Shown here: positions 33,208-60,813 of the stretch, piece after piece
Layout: each line of letters starts with the position of its first letter
Numbering within the stretch: position 1 is the first letter of the stretch
Assembly: GCA_037833965.1 (NCBI GenBank)
Contig: AP031354.1
Location: forward strand, 5,992,001-6,056,000
Direction of reading: 5' to 3'
Source of the DNA: Marchantia polymorpha subsp. ruderalis
Taxonomy: Eukaryota; Streptophyta; Marchantiopsida; Marchantiales; Marchantiaceae
Length of the DNA: 64,000 nt
Notes under the pieces: model-generated
The model's input: only the letters and a program-made list of their open reading frames with translations
Databases searched by the model: none
What the model was told of the DNA's origin: nothing
Translations under genes and position numbers: made by a program

Positions 33208-34254
33208 ATGGCTGGCGCTTTGGATGCGATGATTCCGGTAGGCCTGGGCCTGACGGTGCAGGAGCTTGCAAATTTGGGCGCATTTGGAGTGGTCCGAGAG
33301 TCGGTCAAGGTGTTCGGAGGAGCACGGCCTGCGCTCGTGTGGATTCAATTCGCCCTCGTCTTGCCCTTCACCCTCTTCATCAACGCAGATCAATACCTCC
33401 AACACAAAATCATCGACAAGCTTTGCCCCGATGTGCCGCCACCTCCGTCTCCCCCGATCGTCAGGCTCGCCTACGCGGGGCCGCTCGGGCATGTGCAGAA
33501 GTGGATGGCCACGGATCTGCACAAGTGGTTGGACATGGATCTGCACCAATGGCTCGGACTGCTGTCCATCGTCGGGCTCGTCCTGCTGAGCTTCTTCGTC
33601 GGCCTCGTCGTGCTGGCGGCCATTTACCACGCCGTGGGATGCATCGTCCAGGGCAGGAACGTGGGCTTCTGCGAGGCGATGAAGGGAGTGCCCCGGCTAT
33701 GGAGGAGGCTCTTCGTCACCAGCTTCGTGAACATGCTGCTCGTGCTCTCATCCGTGGCCGTGTTCATCATCTTCGTCATCATCTTCAAGCTCGCCGTGCC
33801 CAGCAAGCACGATCTGCTGCCGATCATCGTCGCCGTGGTCGGAGCTGTGTTCCTGATCCCTATTTTCATCATCTACCTCATGTTCCAGGTCGCCAATGGC
33901 GTCACTTGCTTCGAGGAGGATTATGGTGTGGCCGCCTTCCGCAGAGCCAAGCACATCATGCACGGCAAGTGGTGCTCGGCCGTGCTCTTGTTCATCCTGC
34001 TCGCCATCCCCACCACGCTGCTCGGCGCCCTGCTCGGCTCCCCGATCGCCATCGCCACGGGCTTCAGCTGGAAGCTCCTCGTCCTCGTCGTCGTCTACGT
34101 CATCTTCACCTCGTACCTCACCGAGCTCATCTGCATCTGCTGGGCCGTCTTCTTCTTCTCGTGCGCCGCCACCTTCGACCTCCGAGCGCCGCACGACGAA
34201 ACGCTGGCTGCCTCCTACCATGCTCTGCCCGAAGACGGCATCGCCGCCCCGTGA
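33208..34254 (+). CDS. Six-helix plant membrane protein, paralog 1
   Basis: An intronless gene of 348 residues starting at ATG 33208. The N-terminus carries the signature shared by all four paralogs here, GLGL-x2-QEL-x3-G (residues about 14-28). About six hydrophobic segments follow, near residues 45-60, 113-140, 168-190, 203-230, 256-280 and 286-315, with a Pro-rich, amphipathic loop after the first. The conserved block VTCFEEDYGVAAFRRAKHIM (about 232-251) sits between segments 4 and 5, and the last helix ends WAVFFFSC. This pattern matches a plant membrane family usually annotated only as transmembrane protein or 'polyadenylate-binding protein 1-B-binding protein'; the molecular role is unknown. 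Codons are markedly GC-rich compared with paralogs 2 and 3. It is followed by a (GAGC)n tract. Confidence 0.9.
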   Translation: MAGALDAMIPVGLGLTVQELANLGAFGVVRESVKVFGGARPALVWIQFALVLPFTLFINADQYLQHKIIDKLCPDVPPPPSPPIVRLAYAGPLGHVQKWMATDLHKWLDMDLHQWLGLLSIVGLVLLSFFVGLVVLAAIYHAVGCIVQGRNVGFCEAMKGVPRLWRRLFVTSFVNMLLVLSSVAVFIIFVIIFKLAVPSKHDLLPIIVAVVGAVFLIPIFIIYLMFQVANGVTCFEEDYGVAAFRRAKHIMHGKWCSAVLLFILLAIPTTLLGALLGSPIAIATGFSWKLLVLVVVYVIFTSYLTELICICWAVFFFSCAATFDLRAPHDETLAASYHALPEDGIAAP

Positions 34255-35293: not shown

Positions 35294-35323
35294 ATAGCTG
35301 CCTAGTGCTGTTCGATGTCCAAA

Positions 35324-35350
35324 TAGGGTTTAGGGTCTAGGGTTTAGGGA
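35324..35350. repeat. Interstitial telomere repeats (TTTAGGG)
   Basis: TAGGGTTTAGGGTCTAGGGTTTAGGGA is three to four plant-type telomere units. Copy 2 of the tandem duplication has unrelated bases (ATGTTGTGGATTCAG) at this place, so the patch was gained or lost after the duplication. Confidence 0.85.
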
Positions 35351-35695
35351 AGAATAGATTGAGTCCTCAACTTTTGACACCCTGTTTTGGTCACACGCAG
35401 AGAAGACGATCAGTCAGTCGGCAGTCTAATCAGATTCTCTTGATGCCCATATTACCCACTAATCGAAGAGGAACCTTTAATATGTCGAGAACCTAATGCA
35501 TTCACATTAATTCGAACGAAATTAGCGAGATTAGCGTGGTCACGAGTTTCCAGTCAAGAGGAGTCAAAGGAGGTCTCGAAAAGTCTTCATTCGGACCCTT
35601 TTGTTTCTGTGCCTGTCAGTATGTGCGCAGATAGACCGAATATCGACGGATTCTGCCATCGAGAGCGCCAGAATATGTGCCAGACGTGACGAAGA

Positions 35696-35758
35696 TATGA
35701 CGATGAGGGAAGTCCCTCATCGTCATAAAAGTCTGCGTGGACTAAAAGTCCACGCAGA
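35696..35758. repeat. Twin perfect hairpins present only in tandem copy 1
   Basis: The first hairpin is 35696-35727 (15-bp stem, loop AG); the second is 35732-35758 (12-bp stem, loop AAA). Copy 2 (around 37960-38000) reads straight from GATGAGGGA into CTAAAAGTCCAC. Relative to copy 2, copy 1 has 31 extra bases (35711-35741), consisting of the inverse of the left flank followed by the inverse of the right flank. Confidence 0.95.
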
Positions 35759-35893
35759 GGGTTTCGTGCGAGGAGCAAGTGTGGCAAGCAAGCTTGGTGT
35801 TGTGAATTTCTCCTCGTGATGATGTTGGGGTATAATGCTTGGAGATATTTTCATGTATCGTACCTTTAAGCTTCGTAAGCCCACATGAGCTCG

Positions 35894-35900
35894 TATATAT
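35894..35900 (+). promoter_or_regulatory. Candidate TATA box, paralog 2
   Basis: CGTATATATCTCTG lies about 160 bp upstream of the ATG at 36058 and is conserved in tandem copy 2. A start site about 30 bp downstream, in the pyrimidine-rich TTTCTCCCCTTCCATC, would be typical. Confidence 0.45.
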
Positions 35901-36057
35901 CTCTGCGAATTTCTCCCCTTCCATCACAAGGGCGTCCGCATACCGAGTTGGAGGTCACTGAGCATTCATTCAGCGATAAGCGGATGTAGAGAACTCTGCC
36001 CAGTTGATTGTCGACCGATCAGGGACTTGAGGACATTACACACAAGTGCCAGGAAAA

Positions 36058-36966
36058 ATGGATGTAGCCGTGGACGAATCACCGCCCACCGGGCTCGGCT
36101 TGAGACGGCAGCAGCTTCGACAGACGGGTCCATGTGAAATTTATAAGCAGGCAACCGAGCAAATGAATCGCCCTACGTTACGGTCGGTGATGCTCAAGGT
36201 CGCCTTCCCATTTGCTCTACTCAATTTCGGAGCTTCAGTGCTCCTCACTTCCAGGATCCCCAATGAACCTTCATGGCAGGTTTTGATGGCCGTCACAGCT
36301 CTGGGACTGGCAACCTCTTGTCTCGATCTCTTAGTCGTGGCTGCCACGTTCTTCACAGTGGGACGCCAGTACCGGGGAGAGAAGGTGACGCTGCAGGAAG
36401 CTCTCCGAGCTATGCTGGGCTTGTGGCCAAAATTGTTCGTCAACAATCTTTATAGCACGGGCTTCATGTTCGCCGTATTCATGGTGAGTCTAGCCGCGGC
36501 CATGACCATCATCTTTACCGCCTCCTCCGATGCTGTCAAGTATTTCGCTTTCGTTGTGATCGCCTTGGTCCTCATCATTCTGGTGGTTGCGATCCAAACT
36601 TTGTCCATCTTTGCGACCGCAGTTACCTGCTATGAAAAGACTTATGGCTGGGCTGCTTACAAGCAAGCGCAGAAGCTCCTGCAGCGCAAATGGAATTCGG
36701 TACCGCTCTTCGCGCTCATATTTTATGTTCCCGTATGGATCACCGGCACCTTTACTTCATATCTCTTGAAGGAATTCCCGGAAACCTCTTTATGGATGGA
36801 ACTGTTCAGGATAGTTTCGTATGCTATCGTGATCACATTGTTTGATCAGCGGTTACTAGTTTCGGGTGCCCTATTCTACTTCTCCTGCTTTGAGAAACCC
36901 GACGAGCAGAATGTGAGTGACAGCATGGAAGCTGGGTATCACTCAATTGCCTCACAGGAGGTTTAG
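36058..36966 (+). CDS. Six-helix plant membrane protein, paralog 2 (tandem copy 1)
   Basis: An intronless gene of 302 residues. The frame is open to a GTG at 36046, but the first ATG is at 36058 (MDVAVDESPP). GLGLRRQQLRQTG at residues 12-24 is the family's N-terminal signature. Likely membrane segments are 47-63, 74-102, 128-153, 161-189, 214-236 and 248-273. The conserved block VTCYEKTYGWAAYKQAQKLL spans 189-208 and the end of the last helix reads ALFYFSC (271-277). The family function is unknown; it is probably an integral protein of an endomembrane or the plasma membrane. It differs from paralog 3 at about 50 residues, almost all in segments 3-6 and the 29-42 linker, whereas the rest and the untranslated flanks are nearly identical. 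Confidence 0.92.
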   Translation: MDVAVDESPPTGLGLRRQQLRQTGPCEIYKQATEQMNRPTLRSVMLKVAFPFALLNFGASVLLTSRIPNEPSWQVLMAVTALGLATSCLDLLVVAATFFTVGRQYRGEKVTLQEALRAMLGLWPKLFVNNLYSTGFMFAVFMVSLAAAMTIIFTASSDAVKYFAFVVIALVLIILVVAIQTLSIFATAVTCYEKTYGWAAYKQAQKLLQRKWNSVPLFALIFYVPVWITGTFTSYLLKEFPETSLWMELFRIVSYAIVITLFDQRLLVSGALFYFSCFEKPDEQNVSDSMEAGYHSIASQEV

Positions 36967-38131
36967 GTGCCAGAATACAAATGGTGTCCGATTCGTCATT
37001 TCCTTTACAGATAGAGAGCTCACATCGTACACGTTCTCAAGCACGCAAATATAAGAACTTGGCATTTGCAAGCTCGAGGACGAGTTCTTCAAATGTCCAC
37101 TTGTATTCTGTCTAAGCTTGTATACAAGACCTCTAGTCATACGTGGACGATAAGGAACAATAAGAATTGAACAAATTCTCATAGTACATTCAGCGGCAAA
37201 TTTTCAAAAGTTACGTGATTTGGAGACAATCAATCTTATGTGCTGAGAAAATCAGTACATGTGCCTCACAATTTCGTTCTTTCTCTTACTCCCGGACTGT
37301 GAAATATTCCTCTGTTTCGTGTTCTTGAGGGCTTTTGACTTTATCTGATTCCTTGCATTCTACGAGATTTCATCATCCATCATGTCTTTGCTGTAAACAG
37401 CCCTGCTTGAATAAACGAGTGCGGCCCCATAAGCCTAGAGCGGAATGCAAGGGCACGCACGCAGGGACAACATTGTGTGAAGACCCATTAAGGATACATC
37501 AGAACTGTAAATCATAAGATAAAATAACTGAATGTAGAAAATGTCTGCTCGTTCTATAGCTGCCCAGTGCTGTTCGATGTCCATGTTGTGGATTCAGAAA
37601 AATGGATTGAGTGAGTCCTCAGCTTTTGACACCCTGTTTTGGTCACAGGCAGAGAAGATGATCAGTCAGTCTAATCAGATTCTCTTGATGCCCATATTAC
37701 CCACTTATCGAAGAGGAACCTGCATACGATGGCTCGCAAGGCCTTTAATACGTCGAGAACCTGAATGCATTCACATTAATTCGAACGAAATTAGCGAGAT
37801 TAGTGTGGTCACGAGTTTCCAGTCAAGAGGAGTCAAAGGAGGTCTCGAAAAGTCTTTATTCGGACCCTTTTGTCTCTGTGCCTGTCAGTATGTGCGCAGA
37901 TAGACCGAATATCGACGGATTCTGCCATCGATAGCGCCAGAATATGTGGCAGACGTGACGAAGAGATGACGATGAGGGACTAAAAGTCCACACATACGCT
38001 TTCGTGCGAGGAGCAAGTGTGGCAAGCAAGCTTGGTGTTGTGAATTTCTCCTCGTGATGATGTTGGGGTATAATGCTTGGAGATATTTTCAAGTATCGTA
38101 CCTTTCAGCTTCGTAAGCCCACATGAGCTCG

Positions 38132-38138
38132 TATATAT
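38132..38138 (+). promoter_or_regulatory. Candidate TATA box, paralog 3
   Basis: The same CGTATATATCTCTG context as in copy 1, about 160 bp upstream of the ATG at 38296. Confidence 0.45.
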
Positions 38139-38295
38139 CTCTGCGAATTTCTCCCCTTCCATCACAAGGGCGTCCGCATACCGAGTTGGAGGTCACTGAG
38201 CATTCATTCAGCGATAAGCGGATGTAGAGAACTCTGCCCAGTTGATTGTCGACCGATCAGGGACTTGAGGACATTACACACAAGTGCCAGGAAAA

Positions 38296-39204
38296 ATGGA
38301 TGTAGCCGTGGACGAATCACCGCCCACCGGGCTCGGCTTGAGACGGCAGCAGCTTCGACAGACGGGTCCATGTGAAATTTTTGAGCAGGTAAAGGAGCAA
38401 ATGAAGGGCCCTCCGTTACGGTCGGTGATGATCAAGGTCGCCTTCCCATTTGCTCTACTCAATATTGGAGCTTCAGTGCTCCTCACTTCCAGGATCCCCA
38501 ATGAACCTTCATGGCAGGTTTTGATGGCCGCCACAGCTCTGGGACTGGCAACCTCTTGTCTCGGTCTCTTGGTCGTGGCTGCCACGTTCTTCACAGTGGG
38601 ACGTCAGTACCGGGGAGAGAAGGTGACGCTGCAGGAAGCTCTCCGAGCTATGCTGGGCTTGTGGCCAAAATTGTTCGTCACCCATCTTTATAACGCGGGC
38701 TTCATGTTCGCCATAGCCACGGTGACTGTAGCCGCGAGCATCAGCGTCATCATTAACGCCTCCTCCGATGCTGTCAAGTATTTCGCTTTCGTTGTGATCG
38801 CCTTGTTTTTCATCATTCTGGCGGTCGTGCTGCAAACTTTGCTCCTCTTCGCGACCGCAGTTACCTGCTATGAAAAGACTTATGGCTGGGCTGCTTACAA
38901 GCAAGCGCAGAAGCTCCTGCAGCGCAAATGGAATTCGGTACCGCTCTTCGCGCTCATATTTTATGTTTTACCGGTGATCTGCGCCACTATCACTTCATAT
39001 AAATTGAAGGCTGTACCGAAAACCTCTTTATGGATGGAACTGTTGAGGATAATTTCGTATGCTTTCCTGAATACATGGTTTGATCAGCAGTTACTAGTTT
39101 CGGGTGCCCTGTTCTACTTCTCCTGCTCTGAGAAATCCGACGAGCAGAATGTGAGTGATAGCATGGAAGCTGGGTATCACTCAATTCCCTCACAGGAGGT
39201 TTAG
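38296..39204 (+). CDS. Six-helix plant membrane protein, paralog 3 (tandem copy 2)
   Basis: Intronless, 302 residues, start at ATG 38296 (MDVAVDESPP; the upstream in-frame GTG at 38284 is not a plausible start). Architecture is the same as paralog 2: N-terminal GLGLRRQQL, six hydrophobic segments, VTCYEKTYGWAAYKQAQKLL block at 189-208, and ALFYFSC near 271-277. Compared with paralog 2, segment 3 (for example FAIATVTVAASISVIIN versus FAVFMVSLAAAMTIIFT) and parts of segments 4-6 have been rewritten while keeping hydrophobicity. Neighbouring codons are identical even at silent sites. No break is seen, so it is presumably functional. Substrate or partner is unknown. Confidence 0.92.
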   Translation: MDVAVDESPPTGLGLRRQQLRQTGPCEIFEQVKEQMKGPPLRSVMIKVAFPFALLNIGASVLLTSRIPNEPSWQVLMAATALGLATSCLGLLVVAATFFTVGRQYRGEKVTLQEALRAMLGLWPKLFVTHLYNAGFMFAIATVTVAASISVIINASSDAVKYFAFVVIALFFIILAVVLQTLLLFATAVTCYEKTYGWAAYKQAQKLLQRKWNSVPLFALIFYVLPVICATITSYKLKAVPKTSLWMELLRIISYAFLNTWFDQQLLVSGALFYFSCSEKSDEQNVSDSMEAGYHSIPSQEV

Positions 39205-39783
39205 GTAACAGAATACAAATGGTGTCCGATTCGTCATTTCCTGTACAGATAGAGAGCTCACATCGTACACGTTCTCAAGCACGCAAATATAAGAACTTGG
39301 CATTTGCAAGCTCCAGTACGACTTCTTCAAATGTCCACTTGTATTCTGTCTAAGCTTGTATATAGGACCTCTAGTCATACGTCGACGATAAGGAACAATG
39401 AGACTTGACCAAATTCTCATAGTACATTCAGCGGCATATTTTCAAAAGTTACGTGATTTGGAGACAATCACTCCTATGTGCTGAGAAAATCAGTACATGT
39501 GGCTCACATTTTCGGTCTTTCTCTTACTCCCGGACTGTGAAATATTCCTCTGTTTCGTGTTCTTGGGGGCTTTTGACTTTTTTCTGATTCCTTGCATTCT
39601 ACGAGATTTCATCATCCATCAATTCATCTTTGCTGTAAATAGCCCTGCTTGAATAAACGAGTGCGGCCCCATAAGCCTAGAGCGGAATGCAAGGGCACGC
39701 ACGCAGGTGTACAACATTGTGTGAAGACCCATGAAGGATACATCAGAACTGTAAATCATAAGATAAAATAACTGAATGTAGAA

Positions 39784-41038
39784 GAAAGTACTCGAATAAA
39801 ACGATTTTGGCGGATAGTCAAATGTCGTCGCCTGGTAGATAAAGCAGATCTAAGAATGTAAGGTTAGTAGGTTGACAGCTCCACATTGACCACTCACTCC
39901 GAAGGGCACCAGTGAATCGGCGAGACACATGTAATGCTTGTACTTGTTACGACCAACGTGGATTAAATTGTTACTTTACACAACAGCCTTAAATTCGATG
40001 AATGATGAGAAATGGTGGTGAGTGAGTTGTGCAGTTCAATATCTATTTCAGGTTCCTACATGAAAGAGTATTCAAATGGCACTGGTATAAAATTAAAATT
40101 GTCTTCTCGATGATCTACTGTGGCCGTAATGACTTTTTCGCATAGAGCTGAAATCTATCAATATTTGACAGGAATTTGAAGTGTATCGAGCTAAGCACGA
40201 GAGATATCGTATAAAGTCAACTACACTGTAGTCACTGGAAAATTTTATGCTTCAGACAGCAAGAGGAAACTGGCACCTTGGACGGAGAATGGTCGGTTCC
40301 GCCGCCCTGGCTTCACCTTGTGCTTTCTCGTTAATCCTCCATGATCTTTGGAACTTTGGATACCTACTACATACAACTTTGGAAGTCCTAGAAGTTTGGA
40401 CAAAAATTTCCAAGTTATGCTGACCGGTTGAAACTTCCCACTTAGCTCAGTCGGTAAAACATCTTCCTCCATATGAAATAAATATAAAGTGTTCTTACAG
40501 ACTTTATTCCATGTGGAATTTGAGAGGGAGGCAAAACGAATACATAAAGGATGTAAAGACCCCATCAACCTCTACAAGGAAGAAAGGAGTAAGACTCAAC
40601 AGGAATAAGATAGAAAATAACTGATACAATGATTCACATATCTAAATTATTCTAAATCACTAAACCCTAAACATCGGCTATAAACAATAGGAGGATACAA
40701 TCAAGAATGAACGAAAGTAATTATTTTTTCATGTATAACATCAGATAATGTTCTATGTAGAGTTACGAAAACATATTGTCTGAATTAATCTACAAAATCT
40801 ATTGAAAAGATGAATTACTTGCTTGAGGCACTCAACACAGGTGGATGCACTAAACGCAAACTGGATGGGTGAGAGATAACAAGCAGATACTGTCTTGGCT
40901 GGAAAACGGCGAGATCTAACTTGCCCAGGGTAAATAAATCTCTACAGGAATTGATTTATCCGGGTTTTTGAGGTTAGCTATCTCTGGCGACGAATTAATT
41001 ATTGCTATTACGCAGCTCAAATATTTACAAAAAAATAT
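39784..41038. other. Intergenic, no supported gene
   Basis: A 107-codon minus-strand frame (40245-40568) has no recognisable domain. A tRNA A-box-like TTAGCTCAGTCGGTAAAA occurs at about 40440, but no matching B box or cloverleaf follows. One AAACCCTAA motif lies near 40665. Confidence 0.5.
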
Positions 41039-50200: not shown

Positions 50201-51505
50201 ACGAGACCCTAATTGAGTCAAACCGTTACGAGTTGAAAGAGTTATGCCGGTTTTATCCTTGGCCGAAGGCACACTGTCAAAGGCTTGTTATCTGTTATCG
50301 CCGAAGGCGCCCGCACGATGTTTCGCCGACTCCGAGTTCTCTGACCTCAAGTTTGCCGACCTCGAGTTCGCTGACTTGAAGTTCGCCGACCTCGAGTTCG
50401 CCGACCTCAAGTTTGCCGACTCCGAGTTTGCTGACTTGAAGTTCTTTGACCTCGAGTTTGCCAACCTCAAGTTTGCCGACTCCGAGTTTGCTGACTTGAA
50501 GTTCGCCGACCTCGAGTTTTCCGACCTCGAGTTCTTCGACCTCGAGTTCGCCGACCTCAAGTTTGCCGACTCCGAGTTTGCTGACTTGAAGTTCTTTGAC
50601 CTCGAGTTCGCCGACCTCAAGTTTTCCGACCTCGAGTTTTCCGACCTCGAGTTCTCCGACCTCGAGTTCGCCGACCTCAAGTTTGCCGACTCCGAGTTTG
50701 CCGACTTGAAGTTGACACGAAGACGTCCGTCGCCGAAGGCGAACATCTAGGGCCGAAGGTGGATATTCTGCTAACGACGAACTCCTTCCGCCTATCCGTA
50801 GGCGTTCTCCTTCGCATCTTCCGACAGTCACAACTCCCTGAGTCCTCATCCGTTCCAGGCGTTCTTGGTCTCGTTAGAACGAGCGCGTTGAGCTCTTTCC
50901 AACGAGACCCTAAGTAACTCAAGGCGTTAAGAATTTAGGAAGTTATGAGTGATCTACCGCCGAAGGTGCTCGAAGCGAGTCCTGCAGCGTGAACCGCCCG
51001 TTCCATTCCAAGCGTTCCACTGTGGCCTAAGCCCAAAACCCCTCGACTGTCCTCGATCCTCTTTTTACTCTGGCTTTGCGTACCGATTACTATTTACAGC
51101 TGCTACCACGGTACTTACTAATCAAAAATGTTCTAATTCCGACGAAAAACAAAAAGTGGGTTACCACAGCACACTTGAAAACAAAGGGTCGGTAAAATGG
51201 GCTGTTGCTGTCAACAAGTGGTGGAATAAAGTTGAATTGTTTGCAACAGCGATGTCTCTTGTTAAGGATCTTAGCAAAGGACCAGAACGTGATCGCGGCG
51301 GAAAACGTGCAAGTAAGATCGTTCCCAAGCATTTTCTTTGAGCTTTAATTTTAACTGAAATATGTTGTATCAAAATGATAATATCTGCGATTGGGTTGCT
51401 GTTATTACAGATAGGAGAACTCGTTCTTCAGATGGTAACATGGATGTAGGCATCAAGAGAAAGCCACCTGGTGAGAGGACACGACGTGCTAACATATGGC
51501 GATGA
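47284..51505 (+). CDS. BED-finger protein carried by the Mutator-like element (function unknown), interrupted by an LTR
   Basis: Exons are 47284-47634, 47794-48405, 48615-48755 continuing at 51174-51312 across the inserted LTR, and 51411-51505. All introns are GT..AG. Without the LTR and one copy of its 5-bp target repeat, the pieces sum to 1338 bp, 445 residues plus stop, in one frame. The N-terminus has a BED/C2H2-type finger (WKCLLQGC...IEKHWRKDH, residues about 33-61). The middle (about 118-320) is acidic to mixed with a KRxMKKSEIDIDEVEAMEDL stretch and FLDYLYSPTGRKAK; the tail is strongly basic (KRKPPGERTRR). I do not recognise the rest. A shorter form using an acceptor at 48521 would add only GEISKSTLDE and stop at 48554. 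It may be an accessory gene of the transposon, as mudrB is in MuDR (analogy only), or a captured host gene. The LTR now prevents a normal product. Confidence 0.7.
48756..51168. mobile_element. Solo LTR (2.4 kb) of an LTR retrotransposon, probably Gypsy-type
   Basis: It starts TGTAATAACCCAC and ends GTGGGTTACCACA, so the ends are a short inverted repeat bounded by TG..CA. The exact 5-bp repeat GCACA flanks it (48751-48755 and 51169-51173), the usual mark of LTR element insertion. There is no coding domain or second LTR, hence a solo LTR (or a non-autonomous element). TGTxxTAACCC ends resemble those of plant Gypsy elements, which is why I favour that family. It contains a 15-bp minisatellite and an internal duplication (about 50100-50330 with 50820-50990). 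The intact target repeats suggest it is the youngest layer of the nest. Confidence 0.8.
49980..50716. repeat. 15-bp minisatellite with higher-order units, inside the LTR
   Basis: Variants of GCCGACCTCGAGTTC repeat about 6 times at 49980-50067 and about 26 times at 50328-50716. They are arranged in 60-75-bp higher-order blocks (CTCGAG, CTCAAG, TCCGAG, TTGAAG variants in order). Because 15 is a multiple of three, all frames stay open and one reads as an ADLEF/ADLKF/ADSEF pentapeptide repeat. This is a by-product of the repeat and not evidence of a gene. Confidence 0.9.
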
Positions 51506-55571: not shown

Positions 55572-56981
55572 TTGACAGTGGAGCTTCGTCGCAATCAAAC
55601 CGGGCATAGTTCTTTGCTTTCTGATATTGAGAAACAAACTGAACATCTTTCAGTTATGACCGCGGGTAACCAAGTCCTTTTTGTCGATGAAAAAAGCTAT
55701 CTAATCTTAACTGATAATAAGATTTTTGATGTTTTCTATGTTGTTGGTGTTAAGCGAAATCTACTTTCCGTAGGTCGCCTCACTGATTTGAGTCATATAG
55801 CATTGTTCGACTCTAAACAATGTTATGTACTCAACAAAAGAAACACACGTAAGGTATTACTTCAAGGAGAACGAGATCCACGCAATAGTCTCTACAGGCT
55901 TTCCAAGCCAAACAGTTTGTCTATGAATCCCCTCACAACATTGTCTCCTACTCAACTAATGAGGTCTACTGATGTTTGGAATATTGAAGACCCTCAACCT
56001 GATTTGCAGATGTGTTCTGTCACACAAGCAGAGCTTTGGCATTGATGCTTGGGGCATGCAAACTATCAGAAAATTCATCTGATGGTTGCCAAAAAGTTGG
56101 ATGTAGACATTCCTCAGATTCGTCATCAAGTCTCTTTGAAGCAGTTGTCTCAGGGCTAAACAAAGTAGGGACCGAGTGCCCAAGGACTCTCACACAAAGA
56201 CCACGCAACCATTACAACTACTTCATTTTGATCTCTGTGGACCTCTTCCTTGTGATTCACTAACCAAGAAACGTTACATCTTGATGTTCACCGATGATTA
56301 CACCAGATACACCTTAATCTAATTTTTGAGAACAAAGTCCGAGGCTCTACAGTCTTTTCAAGAATTCAAGATCTTGGTGGAGAATAATTACAATAGAACT
56401 ATTGCTGCTCTACGAACAGATCGGGGAGGAGAATATCTCTCAAATGCATACCATGACTTGTGTATCCAATCAGGTATTAAACACTACCTCACCAGTGCTT
56501 ATATCTCACACACCAAAATGGCATTTCTGAGCGGAAAAATAGAACTGTACTTGAAATGACTCGTAGTTTGTTATTATATACTCAGTTGCCGAAGCCTCTA
56601 TGGGAAGAGGCAGCTAGAACAGCAGTATACATATTGAATCAGCTTTTTACTAAAGCCGTCTAGATGTACACTCCTTTTCAAAAATTAACTGGTTTGATTC
56701 CCAATCTCAAACATTTGAGAGTTTTCGGATGTGCTGACTCCGTCCTATTGACAACTCTCCATGACAAGCTTTTTGCAAAAGTGCTCCCGGTTACCTTCAT
56801 AGGCTACGATACTCAATCTAAAGCCTATCGCGTCTATGATACTATCAATGAGAAGATTTATATAAGCCGAAATGTTAGGTTTAATGAATCCATATTTGGA
56901 CTCGCGGCTTGTCAATTAGGATATTTTGCTGCATACCAAAACGCTTTCTATCCCATCCATTCTTGCGTCTACACCACATGA
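55572..56981 (+). mobile_element. Second copia fragment, integrase region, head-to-head with the first
   Basis: The plus strand shows the pre-integrase region (LTDNKIFDVFYVVGVKRNLLSVG), integrase core (ALRTDRGGEYLSNAYHDLC) and integrase end (PNLKHLRVFGC). The last 300 bp (about 56690-56980) match the reverse complement of 55240-55550 at roughly 85-90%, so two copies of one copia family, or an inverted piece of the same element, face each other here. It has no LTR of its own on this strand. It is broken, with a handful of interruptions. Confidence 0.75.
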
Positions 56982-59796: not shown

Positions 59797-60813
59797 ATGA
59801 AAGTTAAAAGTGTGGACACGATGGAAGAGGCCGCTGGCCTCGGATTGACCCGGCAGCAGCTGGCGGAATTGGGTGCATTCGGAATCGTCTGGGAGTCCAT
59901 CGATCTGTTTCAGCGCCCTCCCCTACCGTCGGTGCAGTTCGCCATCGTCCTGCCTTACACTGCCCTCTTTGTTATAGTTCAGTTCCTTCAAGCAGGCTGG
60001 CTACTCTCTCTGCTCCCGAATCCGGCTACTGCTCAGGCTCAGGCTCCGCCTCAACTCAATGCTCCTCCTCAGGCTCCCCCACCTGTGGCGCCACTCCCCG
60101 ATCTGCCTCTGCTGCTGTGGAGCCTGATCCTTGTCCTTGTGGCAATTTTCACCTTCTGCCTGAGCTTGTTCGTCGTTGCTGCGACTTTCTACGCTGTGGG
60201 AAGCATATACTGGGGCAAGGAAGTGACCCCCCCAATTGGGTTCCGAAGCATGTGGCCGAAGTTGTTTGTCACTGCTGTGTACCCAATGGCCTTCGTATTC
60301 GCAGTGCTCCTGGGATCAATCTTCGTCTTCAGCATTCTGAAGATCACATTTTCCGGCTCTCTGATGGCAGTGTACCTGATCCTGATCGGCTTCACTTCCA
60401 CCATTATGATCTTCATAGTTAAAATTCTGATCCAAGAGGCAAACGGCGTGACTTACTACGAAGAGACCTTCCGATTCCCTGCTCTCAGGCGAGCACTTTC
60501 TATCATGAATCAAAGATGGGGAACCGGGCTGCTGTTGGTCATCATCTACCTCTGCGCCGGAAGCATCTTGGGGTTTCTGAGTCCGAATCCCGCTGTCTTG
60601 AGCGAACGAGGCATCGAGAAGCCCGATCTCATTCTCGGATTGGTATACACTGTGCTTCTGTCATGGTTGACTCAGCTGTCTCTCATCTCCTGGGCCTTGT
60701 TCTACTTTTCCTGCACTGCGAGATCCGGTGAGCAGGATGTGGATGACCGTGTGGAAGGTGGCTATCAGCCAGTTCGCGCAGAACAGATCAGGGATGAGGA
60801 CGACGAAAAGTGA
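59797..60813 (+). CDS. Six-helix plant membrane protein, paralog 4
   Basis: Intronless, 338 residues from ATG 59797 (a second in-frame ATG at 59821, residue 9, is an equally good start). GLGLTRQQLAELGAFGIVWES (residues about 15-35) is very close to paralog 1's N-terminus. A Gln/Ala/Pro-rich extracytosolic or lumenal loop of about 35 residues follows the first helix. Five more hydrophobic segments lie near 104-133, 150-180, 188-212, 240-262 and 275-302. The family block is VTYYEETFRFPALRRALSIM (about 216-235), and the last helix ends ALFYFSC. The C-terminal tail is acidic (EDDEK). Same strand and family as the cluster at 33-39 kb, from which the 16-kb transposon nest now separates it. No break is seen. 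Confidence 0.9.
   Translation: MKVKSVDTMEEAAGLGLTRQQLAELGAFGIVWESIDLFQRPPLPSVQFAIVLPYTALFVIVQFLQAGWLLSLLPNPATAQAQAPPQLNAPPQAPPPVAPLPDLPLLLWSLILVLVAIFTFCLSLFVVAATFYAVGSIYWGKEVTPPIGFRSMWPKLFVTAVYPMAFVFAVLLGSIFVFSILKITFSGSLMAVYLILIGFTSTIMIFIVKILIQEANGVTYYEETFRFPALRRALSIMNQRWGTGLLLVIIYLCAGSILGFLSPNPAVLSERGIEKPDLILGLVYTVLLSWLTQLSLISWALFYFSCTARSGEQDVDDRVEGGYQPVRAEQIRDEDDEK

What the first reader, a model, noticed from the sequence alone, without database searches (positions are those of the whole stretch)
35294..39783. Tandem membrane-protein pair differing almost only by amino-acid changes, clustered in membrane segments
The two 302-residue products differ at about 50 positions. These fall in residues 29-42, 129-155, 171-186, 224-243 and 250-266, while intervening codons and the untranslated flanks are nearly identical and I count fewer than about ten silent differences. 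An excess of replacement over silent change with hydrophobicity preserved suggests diversifying selection on helices 3-6 after a recent duplication. Alternatively, patchy gene conversion from another diverged paralog replaced those blocks.
Basis: partly seen in the sequence, partly recalled or inferred. Interest (0 to 1): 0.75.

Follow-up and report, generated by a model that had tools for sequence, protein, structure and literature searches.

The report
Liverwort membrane-gene triplet under positive selection
Three young copies of a six-helix membrane-protein gene in the liverwort Marchantia have been changing their protein sequence faster than nearby non-coding DNA changes, mostly within membrane helices, which suggests that selection is reshaping a membrane protein of unknown job.

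Summary
The window comes from a Marchantia polymorpha-like genome. A 2.24-kb tandem duplication holds two intact 302-codon genes, A and B, differing by 53 replacement and 7 silent codons. By codon models A/B alone are marginal (omega 1.8-2.2, p 0.04-0.06); all three together give 2.3-2.45 (p 0.002-0.004). This survives multi-nucleotide mutation, rate variation along the gene and a cluster-preserving neutral simulation (p 0.001). Replacement sites changed 2.2-2.8 times as much as flanking non-coding sites. Most of the excess is on B, in helices 3-6; C shows a high ratio on few changes, A none. No donor paralog for B's clusters was found. A and B share a 274-bp conversion-like identical tract over the 5' UTR and N-terminus. 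Best reading: positive selection after duplication is retuning the transmembrane bundle of an uncharacterised six-TM family, while conversion homogenises one end. The kind of event is known; the family's function and the driver are not.

The parts
35296..37540 (+). Tandem unit 1 (contains gene A); approximate limits
   Evidence: blastn of the two units, 90.75% over 2,281 columns; alignment
37556..39790 (+). Tandem unit 2 (contains gene B); approximate limits
36058..36966 (+). Gene A: 302-aa single open frame, six-TM protein by prediction
   Evidence: intact ORF; six-helix model, mean pLDDT 62
38296..39204 (+). Gene B: 302-aa copy with the most amino-acid changes
35869..36142 (+). 274-bp tract identical in A and B (B: 38107-38380) across 5' UTR and codons 1-28, where copy C has 7 private differences: probable A/B gene conversion
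   Evidence: label-shuffle p 0.0006
36142..36183 (+). A codons 29-42, N-terminal helical stretch before TM1, 7.5 N : 0.5 S changes vs B
36442..36522 (+). A codons 129-155 (TM3), 17 N : 0 S changes vs B
36568..36615 (+). A codons 171-186 (TM4), 8.5 N : 3.5 S vs B
36727..36786 (+). A codons 224-243 (end of TM5 and TM5-6 loop), 16.5 N : 5.5 S vs B; several positions differ among all three copies
36805..36855 (+). A codons 250-266 (TM6), 7 N : 1 S vs B
38680..38760 (+). B codons 129-155; a 34-mer from this stretch has no other match within 3 mismatches in the genome
38965..39024 (+). B codons 224-243; multi-base changes; a proline that A and C share with 6 of 9 older paralogs is displaced by one residue; no donor found
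36937..36948 (+). C-terminal YHSI, YxxPhi-type motif (A)
   Evidence: family alignment: YxxPhi at this place in 9 of 12 aligned members, three of them A, B and C; motif name recalled
39175..39186 (+). C-terminal YHSI, YxxPhi-type motif (B)
33208..34254 (+). Older paralog D of the same family (348 aa, 26% identical to A)
59797..60813 (+). Older paralog E of the same family (338 aa, 32% identical to A)

Best explanation
A, B and dispersed copy C are a recent three-copy expansion of an uncharacterised six-transmembrane plant protein family. After duplication, positive selection changed amino acids in the transmembrane bundle (TM3-TM6 and the TM5-TM6 loop), most of all in B and probably also in C, while hydropathy in the membrane cores and the reading frame were preserved. 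Gene conversion between the tandem copies kept the 5' UTR and N-terminus identical. The likeliest mechanism (inferred) is a change of what the membrane-embedded surface binds or passes, either a ligand or substrate, or a partner or antagonist. The constant loops and the C-terminal tail keep topology and trafficking unchanged. Shown here: copies, intact frames, rates, clustering, no donor found. Inferred: topology in detail, conversion, selection as the cause. Not shown: function, expression, the driver.
For: Three-copy codon model: omega 2.28 (p 0.0017), 2.45 with multi-nucleotide changes (p 0.0038), M2a over M1a p 4e-8 and 0.001. With rate variation along the gene shared by silent and replacement changes, omega 2.37-2.43, p 0.0018-0.0032. 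Neutral simulation that keeps clustering and adjacency: 10 silent of 90 changed codons, expected 22.5%, p 0.001. Replacement sites 94.5/659 changed against 36/707 in the near flanks (p 4e-9), 26/405 in the 3' flank alone (p 4e-5) and 50/798 with a further 5' stretch (p 3e-7), while silent sites (17.5/247) do not differ from the near flanks (p 0.20). A/B alone: 63.5/658 vs 41/1213 flank sites, p 5e-8. Positions 1+2 against fourfold sites: B/C 69/604 vs 3/124, p 0.0006; A/B 58/604 vs 4/124, p 0.011; A/C 38/604 vs 3/124, p 0.059. No stop in any copy, against a joint neutral chance of 0.014. 35 of 53 A/B replacements lie in TM cores that make up 41% of the protein, p 1e-4, with smaller hydropathy change there than random (p 0.0055). 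No GC-biased direction (B: 20 W to S, 23 S to W).
Against: In codon models A/B alone is marginal (p 0.059, 0.041 with MNM; 0.068 in the rotation test; counting omega 1.31 and 1.59), as is A/C with MNM (0.072). Lineage A shows no signal (p 0.31), and a free omega per branch is not better than one omega (p 0.47, 0.33). C's excess over the flanks (26/659 vs 12/707, p 0.009) shrinks when the further 5' stretch is added (22/798 by the counts, not tested). In-block silent divergence is also raised (dS 0.153 in blocks, 0.030 outside), so local rate or complex mutation contributes; B has 16 adjacent changed pairs. Raw silent:replacement codon counts in the five wrong frames are not far from the true frame (for example A/B 11:52 vs 7:53). 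The flanks may be partly constrained or homogenised, which would make them too slow a yardstick. TM cores were drawn by me after seeing the data. A/C replacements are not enriched in them (18 of 36, p 0.28), and no helix face is preferred (six of six helices p >0.1). Only one genome was examined: no population or sister-species data.
Confidence: 0.72

Rival explanations
1. Relaxed constraint: A, B and C are redundant copies drifting at omega 1, and the excess is chance plus multi-nucleotide mutation.
For: A/B alone only marginal in codon models; lineage A omega not clearly above 1; in-block silent divergence raised; an omega of 1 is not rejected for A/B or for A/C at the 0.01 level.
Against: omega=1 rejected on three copies in four model settings (p 0.002-0.004) and in the cluster-preserving simulation (p 0.001); replacement change exceeds flanking non-coding DNA; no stop in three copies (joint chance 0.014). 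The single in-frame 3-base gap in the CDS is not informative: the near flanks hold only a few gaps too.
Confidence: 0.15
2. Patchy gene conversion from a diverged donor: B's clusters were copied from a paralog or haplotype that is lost or absent in this strain, and the replacement excess was inherited from the donor.
For: Clusters separated by identical stretches, raised in-block silent divergence, 16 adjacent changed pairs on B, conversion-like A/B tract, mosaic lineage pattern CDS vs flanks (p 0.0046).
Against: Searches found three copies in the genome; a 146-base cluster query finds only those three; 31- and 34-mers from B's two densest clusters have no other match within 3 mismatches. Next paralogs are 32% identical or less. 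Conversion alone does not create an excess of replacement over silent change, so the donor would itself need one. Blocks 29-42 and 171-186 were searched only as part of the whole unit.
Confidence: 0.1
3. Mutational artefact: a local mutation hotspot or GC-biased conversion.
For: Clustering and adjacent changes in B.
Against: No W to S bias; models with shared rate variation still need omega 2.4; rotation test keeps the clusters and still rejects.
Confidence: 0.03

Closest known systems
Positive selection after tandem duplication with concurrent gene conversion (general kind recalled; plant NLR and defensin examples seen only as titles and abstract starts in the listings)
   Same: Young tandem copies, omega above 1, local homogenisation, intact frames
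   Different: Changes lie largely within predicted transmembrane helices of a small membrane family of unknown function rather than in a ligand-binding ectodomain or LRR
Uncharacterised plant six-TM family (PANTHER PTHR33133-like; name recalled, not tested)
   Same: About 300-400 aa in 12 aligned members, each a single open frame, six predicted TM helices (modelled for A), a partly conserved E...A...W segment after TM4, C-terminal YxxPhi in 9 of 12
   Different: A/B/C are a young fast-changing clade; the other members are 32% identical or less to A
CysZ sulfate permease / EI24 (PF07264)
   Same: CysZ chains are the best Foldseek matches of the model (6d9z E 0.10, TM 0.45/0.55; 6d79 E 0.28-0.32, TM 0.51/0.68; probability 1.00)
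   Different: No match reaches E 0.001, from a model of mean pLDDT 62; no Pfam or profile match
YciC / UPF0259 (PF06790)
   Same: By eye, similar wording of the loops around TM3 and after TM4
   Different: Profile comparison gives no support (hhalign prob 0.4%, 11 family members vs 16 YciC)

Membership tests
Genes under positive selection | omega significantly above 1 | tested here: met
   three copies; the pair alone marginal:
Genes under positive selection | replacement rate above an independent neutral yardstick | tested here: met
   94.5/659 vs 36/707 or 50/798 flank sites
Genes under positive selection | excess of fixed over polymorphic replacements (McDonald-Kreitman) | not testable with these tools
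   one genome only
Patchy conversion from a diverged paralog | donor sequence present in the genome | tested here: not met
   no donor found; the search tool warns that a miss does not prove absence
CysZ / EI24 (PF07264) | profile match | tested here: not met
   not among the family members' hits; hhalign to the one E. coli CysZ prob 0.9%
CysZ / EI24 (PF07264) | shared fold | tested here: inconclusive
   top Foldseek hits but E 0.1 or worse on a low-confidence model
YciC / UPF0259 (PF06790) | profile match | tested here: not met
PTHR33133-like plant family | match to the PANTHER model | not testable with these tools

The most novel reading that the evidence does not exclude
An unrecognised recognition or arms-race system in which the target of diversifying selection is the membrane-embedded helix bundle itself: a liverwort six-TM protein that escapes or recognises a hydrophobic effector, toxin or viral or partner transmembrane segment, with duplicates specialising to different ligands.
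Probability: 0.2. Interest if true: 0.75.

Novelty: new member of a known kind. Interest (0 to 1): 0.48.

Why it matters
A whole-gene omega above 2 is uncommon (general knowledge; not measured here), and it falls mainly in predicted transmembrane helices of a family for which the searches I made showed no described function. The genes are short single open frames in a haploid model plant that is easy to transform. Other accessions and subspecies have assemblies (MarpolBase), so both the selection claim and the function can be tested directly. If true, it marks an unstudied membrane protein as the site of an adaptive conflict or specificity change in a liverwort.

Tried and rejected
Donor conversion: searched for and not found. 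Overlapping reading frame as the cause of silent constraint: the other five frames carry 17-42 stops summed over the two members of each pair; their silent:replacement counts are close to those of the true frame, so raw counts alone do not carry the case. GC-biased conversion: no bias. A single helix face under selection: no periodicity. Membership in YciC/UPF0259 and CysZ/EI24: no sequence support. Pfam, NCBIfam and solved-structure sequence searches gave nothing above a cut-off for family members. Whether variable sites are simply family-variable sites: conservation 0.43 vs 0.47, p 0.12, uninformative. Polarising by older paralogs is weak and mixed: at 35 B-specific sites 52 vs 39 outgroup matches for the A/C and B states, at 18 C-specific sites 28 vs 14 for the A/B and C states, at 9 A-specific sites 6 vs 13 for the B/C and A states. 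The proline at 225 is displaced in B, but at 129 B keeps the T of all nine older paralogs, which A and C lost. Papers: nothing on these genes was seen in the titles and abstract starts listed; the M. polymorpha pangenome paper that I recalled by DOI is not held.

Mended on rereading: the flank yardstick was first a near-flank choice; one search adds wider flanks and the A/B pair alone. It weakens the C lineage and strengthens A/B; I left the odds as they were.
Full report
Where it is. The window lies in a 241,466,482-base, nine-contig genome. A 20-base M. polymorpha actin primer that I recalled matches it exactly once and is held in the text of three Marchantia papers (listing only). MarpolBase lists MpTak1_v7.1 with 9 chromosomes and 241 Mbp and MpTak2_v7.1 with 9 and 242 (PMC13078153, passages seen). 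I take it as M. polymorpha, probably Tak-1; a close relative is not excluded. A passage of that paper speaks of reads from a haploid genome, so allelic confusion is unlikely.

Anatomy. Two head-to-tail units of about 2.24 kb (90.75% over 2,281 columns) each hold an uninterrupted 302-codon gene: A at 36058-36966 and B at 38296-39204. A third copy, C (303 codons, intact), lies on the same chromosome at 13,997,052-13,997,960 and shares about 1.8 kb of the unit. A further 83-bp piece of the unit matches about 1.3 kb upstream of it, as if something had been inserted there. The DNA search of the genome finds these three copies. Protein searches with A and with D give 14 distinct family loci, a lower bound by the tool's own note; I aligned 12 of them. 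One apparently split ORF and one fragment with stops were left out. Two older members, D at 33208 and E at 59797, lie on either side of the pair in this window.

Pair counts. A/B: 60 codons differ, 53 by replacement and 7 silently. Path counts are Nd 63.5 and Sd 15.5, with codon-position counts 31, 27 and 21. NG86 omega is 1.31; pairwise GY94 omega is 1.79, p 0.059; with multi-nucleotide changes 2.16, p 0.041. A/C: 2.38, p 0.023; with MNM 2.17, p 0.072. B/C: 2.65, p 0.0014; with MNM 3.09, p 0.003. Per block: 29-42 5.9, 129-155 infinite (17 N, 0 S), 171-186 1.09, 224-243 1.27, 250-266 2.7. So by codon models the pair itself is suggestive, not decisive.

Three copies. Adding C makes the case. 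One omega for all three: 2.28, p 0.0017; with multi-nucleotide changes 2.45, p 0.0038. M2a beats M1a at p 4e-8 and 0.001. Separate branch values are A 1.27, B 2.28, C 3.74 (1.09, 3.18, 3.84 with MNM), but a separate omega per branch is not needed (p 0.47, 0.33). With two rate classes shared by silent and replacement changes, omega stays at 2.37-2.43, p 0.0018-0.0032. These are my own implementations with one starting point each. In a simulation that rotates the observed change positions along the gene, keeping clusters and adjacent changes and discarding draws with stops, the silent fraction expected is 22.5% and observed is 10 of 90, p 0.001. By lineage p is 0.012 for B, 0.056 for C and 0.31 for A; by pair 0.068 A-B, 0.039 A-C, 0.009 B-C.

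Neutral yardsticks. By parsimony, replacement changes are 94.5 of 659 sites, silent 17.5 of 247, near flanks 36 of 707 (5': 10/302; 3': 26/405). Replacement exceeds the flanks (p 4e-9; 3' alone p 4e-5) and silent does not (p 0.20). By lineage against the near flanks: B 51 vs 10 (p 5e-9), C 26 vs 12 (p 0.009), A 17 vs 14 (p 0.29). Adding the further 5' stretch 35630-35755, which I had first left out, makes the flanks 50 of 798 (p 3e-7 overall), but puts C's flank changes at 22 of 798, so the C excess over flanks is not firm. For A/B alone, replacement 63.5 of 658 stands against 41 of 1,213 flank sites (p 5e-8), or 58 of 1,277 with the ragged unit edge (p 2e-5). Intact frames in all three have a joint neutral chance of 0.014. 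The direction of change shows no GC bias.

Where the changes lie. The AlphaFold2 model (four window sequences, mean pLDDT 62, pTM 0.57) has six long helices at 39-66, 72-105, 112-154, 158-196, 215-238 and 245-278. In TM cores that I drew by hand from hydropathy and this model (41% of residues) lie 35 of 53 A/B replacements (p 1e-4), 40 of 62 B/C (p 4e-5) and 18 of 36 A/C (p 0.28). Hydropathy change in the cores is smaller than for random replacements: A/B p 0.0055, B/C p 0.019, A/C p 0.054. Residues 229-242 (end of TM5 and the TM5-6 loop) differ among all three copies at several places: TGTFTSYLLKEFPE, CATITSYKLKAVPK, YATLFSYLLKDLPR. No helix shows a preferred face.

Conversion. A and B are identical over 274 bp (35869-36142), where C has 7 private differences (shuffle p 0.0006). 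The lineage pattern of changes differs between CDS and flanks (p 0.0046), which selection on B could also cause. This fits conversion between the tandem copies at the 5' end. A donor for B's clusters was not found. A lost or unsampled donor cannot be excluded.

What the protein may be. No Pfam, NCBIfam or solved-structure sequence match passes a cut-off for the family members searched. Foldseek ranks CysZ chains first (6d9z E 0.10; 6d79 TM 0.51/0.68, E 0.28-0.32; none at E 0.001), which is a lead only. hhalign gives no support for CysZ or YciC. A C-terminal YxxPhi-type motif stands in 9 of 12 members, A, B and C among them; its reading as a sorting signal is recalled knowledge. I infer an endomembrane or plasma-membrane six-helix protein whose bundle binds or passes something. 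Whether the driver is specificity change or conflict is open.

Verdict. Real, well beyond a chance reading once C and the flanks are included, and of a known kind: positive selection after duplication. Unusual for its target (membrane helices) and its unstudied family. Only one genome was at hand, and the genome-wide rarity was not measured.

Noticed in passing
window 35324-35349: Telomere-like TAGGGTTTAGGGTCTAGGGTTTAGGG stretch in unit A, near its left boundary, absent from unit B; perhaps a trace of break repair at the duplication.
   Followed up: no
window 35698-35758: Two adjacent hairpin-like inverted repeats in A (read by eye); at the same place B lacks 31 bases (alignment).
   Followed up: no
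window 50244-50750: ORF of 168 aa with pentapeptide repeats (Pfam PF13599 E 2e-13, PF00805 E 1e-10), over a 30-base tandem repeat of about 13 copies.
   Followed up: no
window 36937-36948, 39175-39186 and family members: C-terminal YxxPhi-type motif at the same place in 9 of 12 aligned paralogs although the surrounding tail is poorly conserved.
   Followed up: partly
L009 / G000:C5:13,998,415-13,999,688: Apparent insertion of about 1.3 kb in the upstream flank of copy C, between two pieces of the duplicated unit.
   Followed up: no
window 55572-56045: Weak match to the Pol_BBD domain (E 2e-4, below its cut-off): possible retroelement remnant.
   Followed up: no
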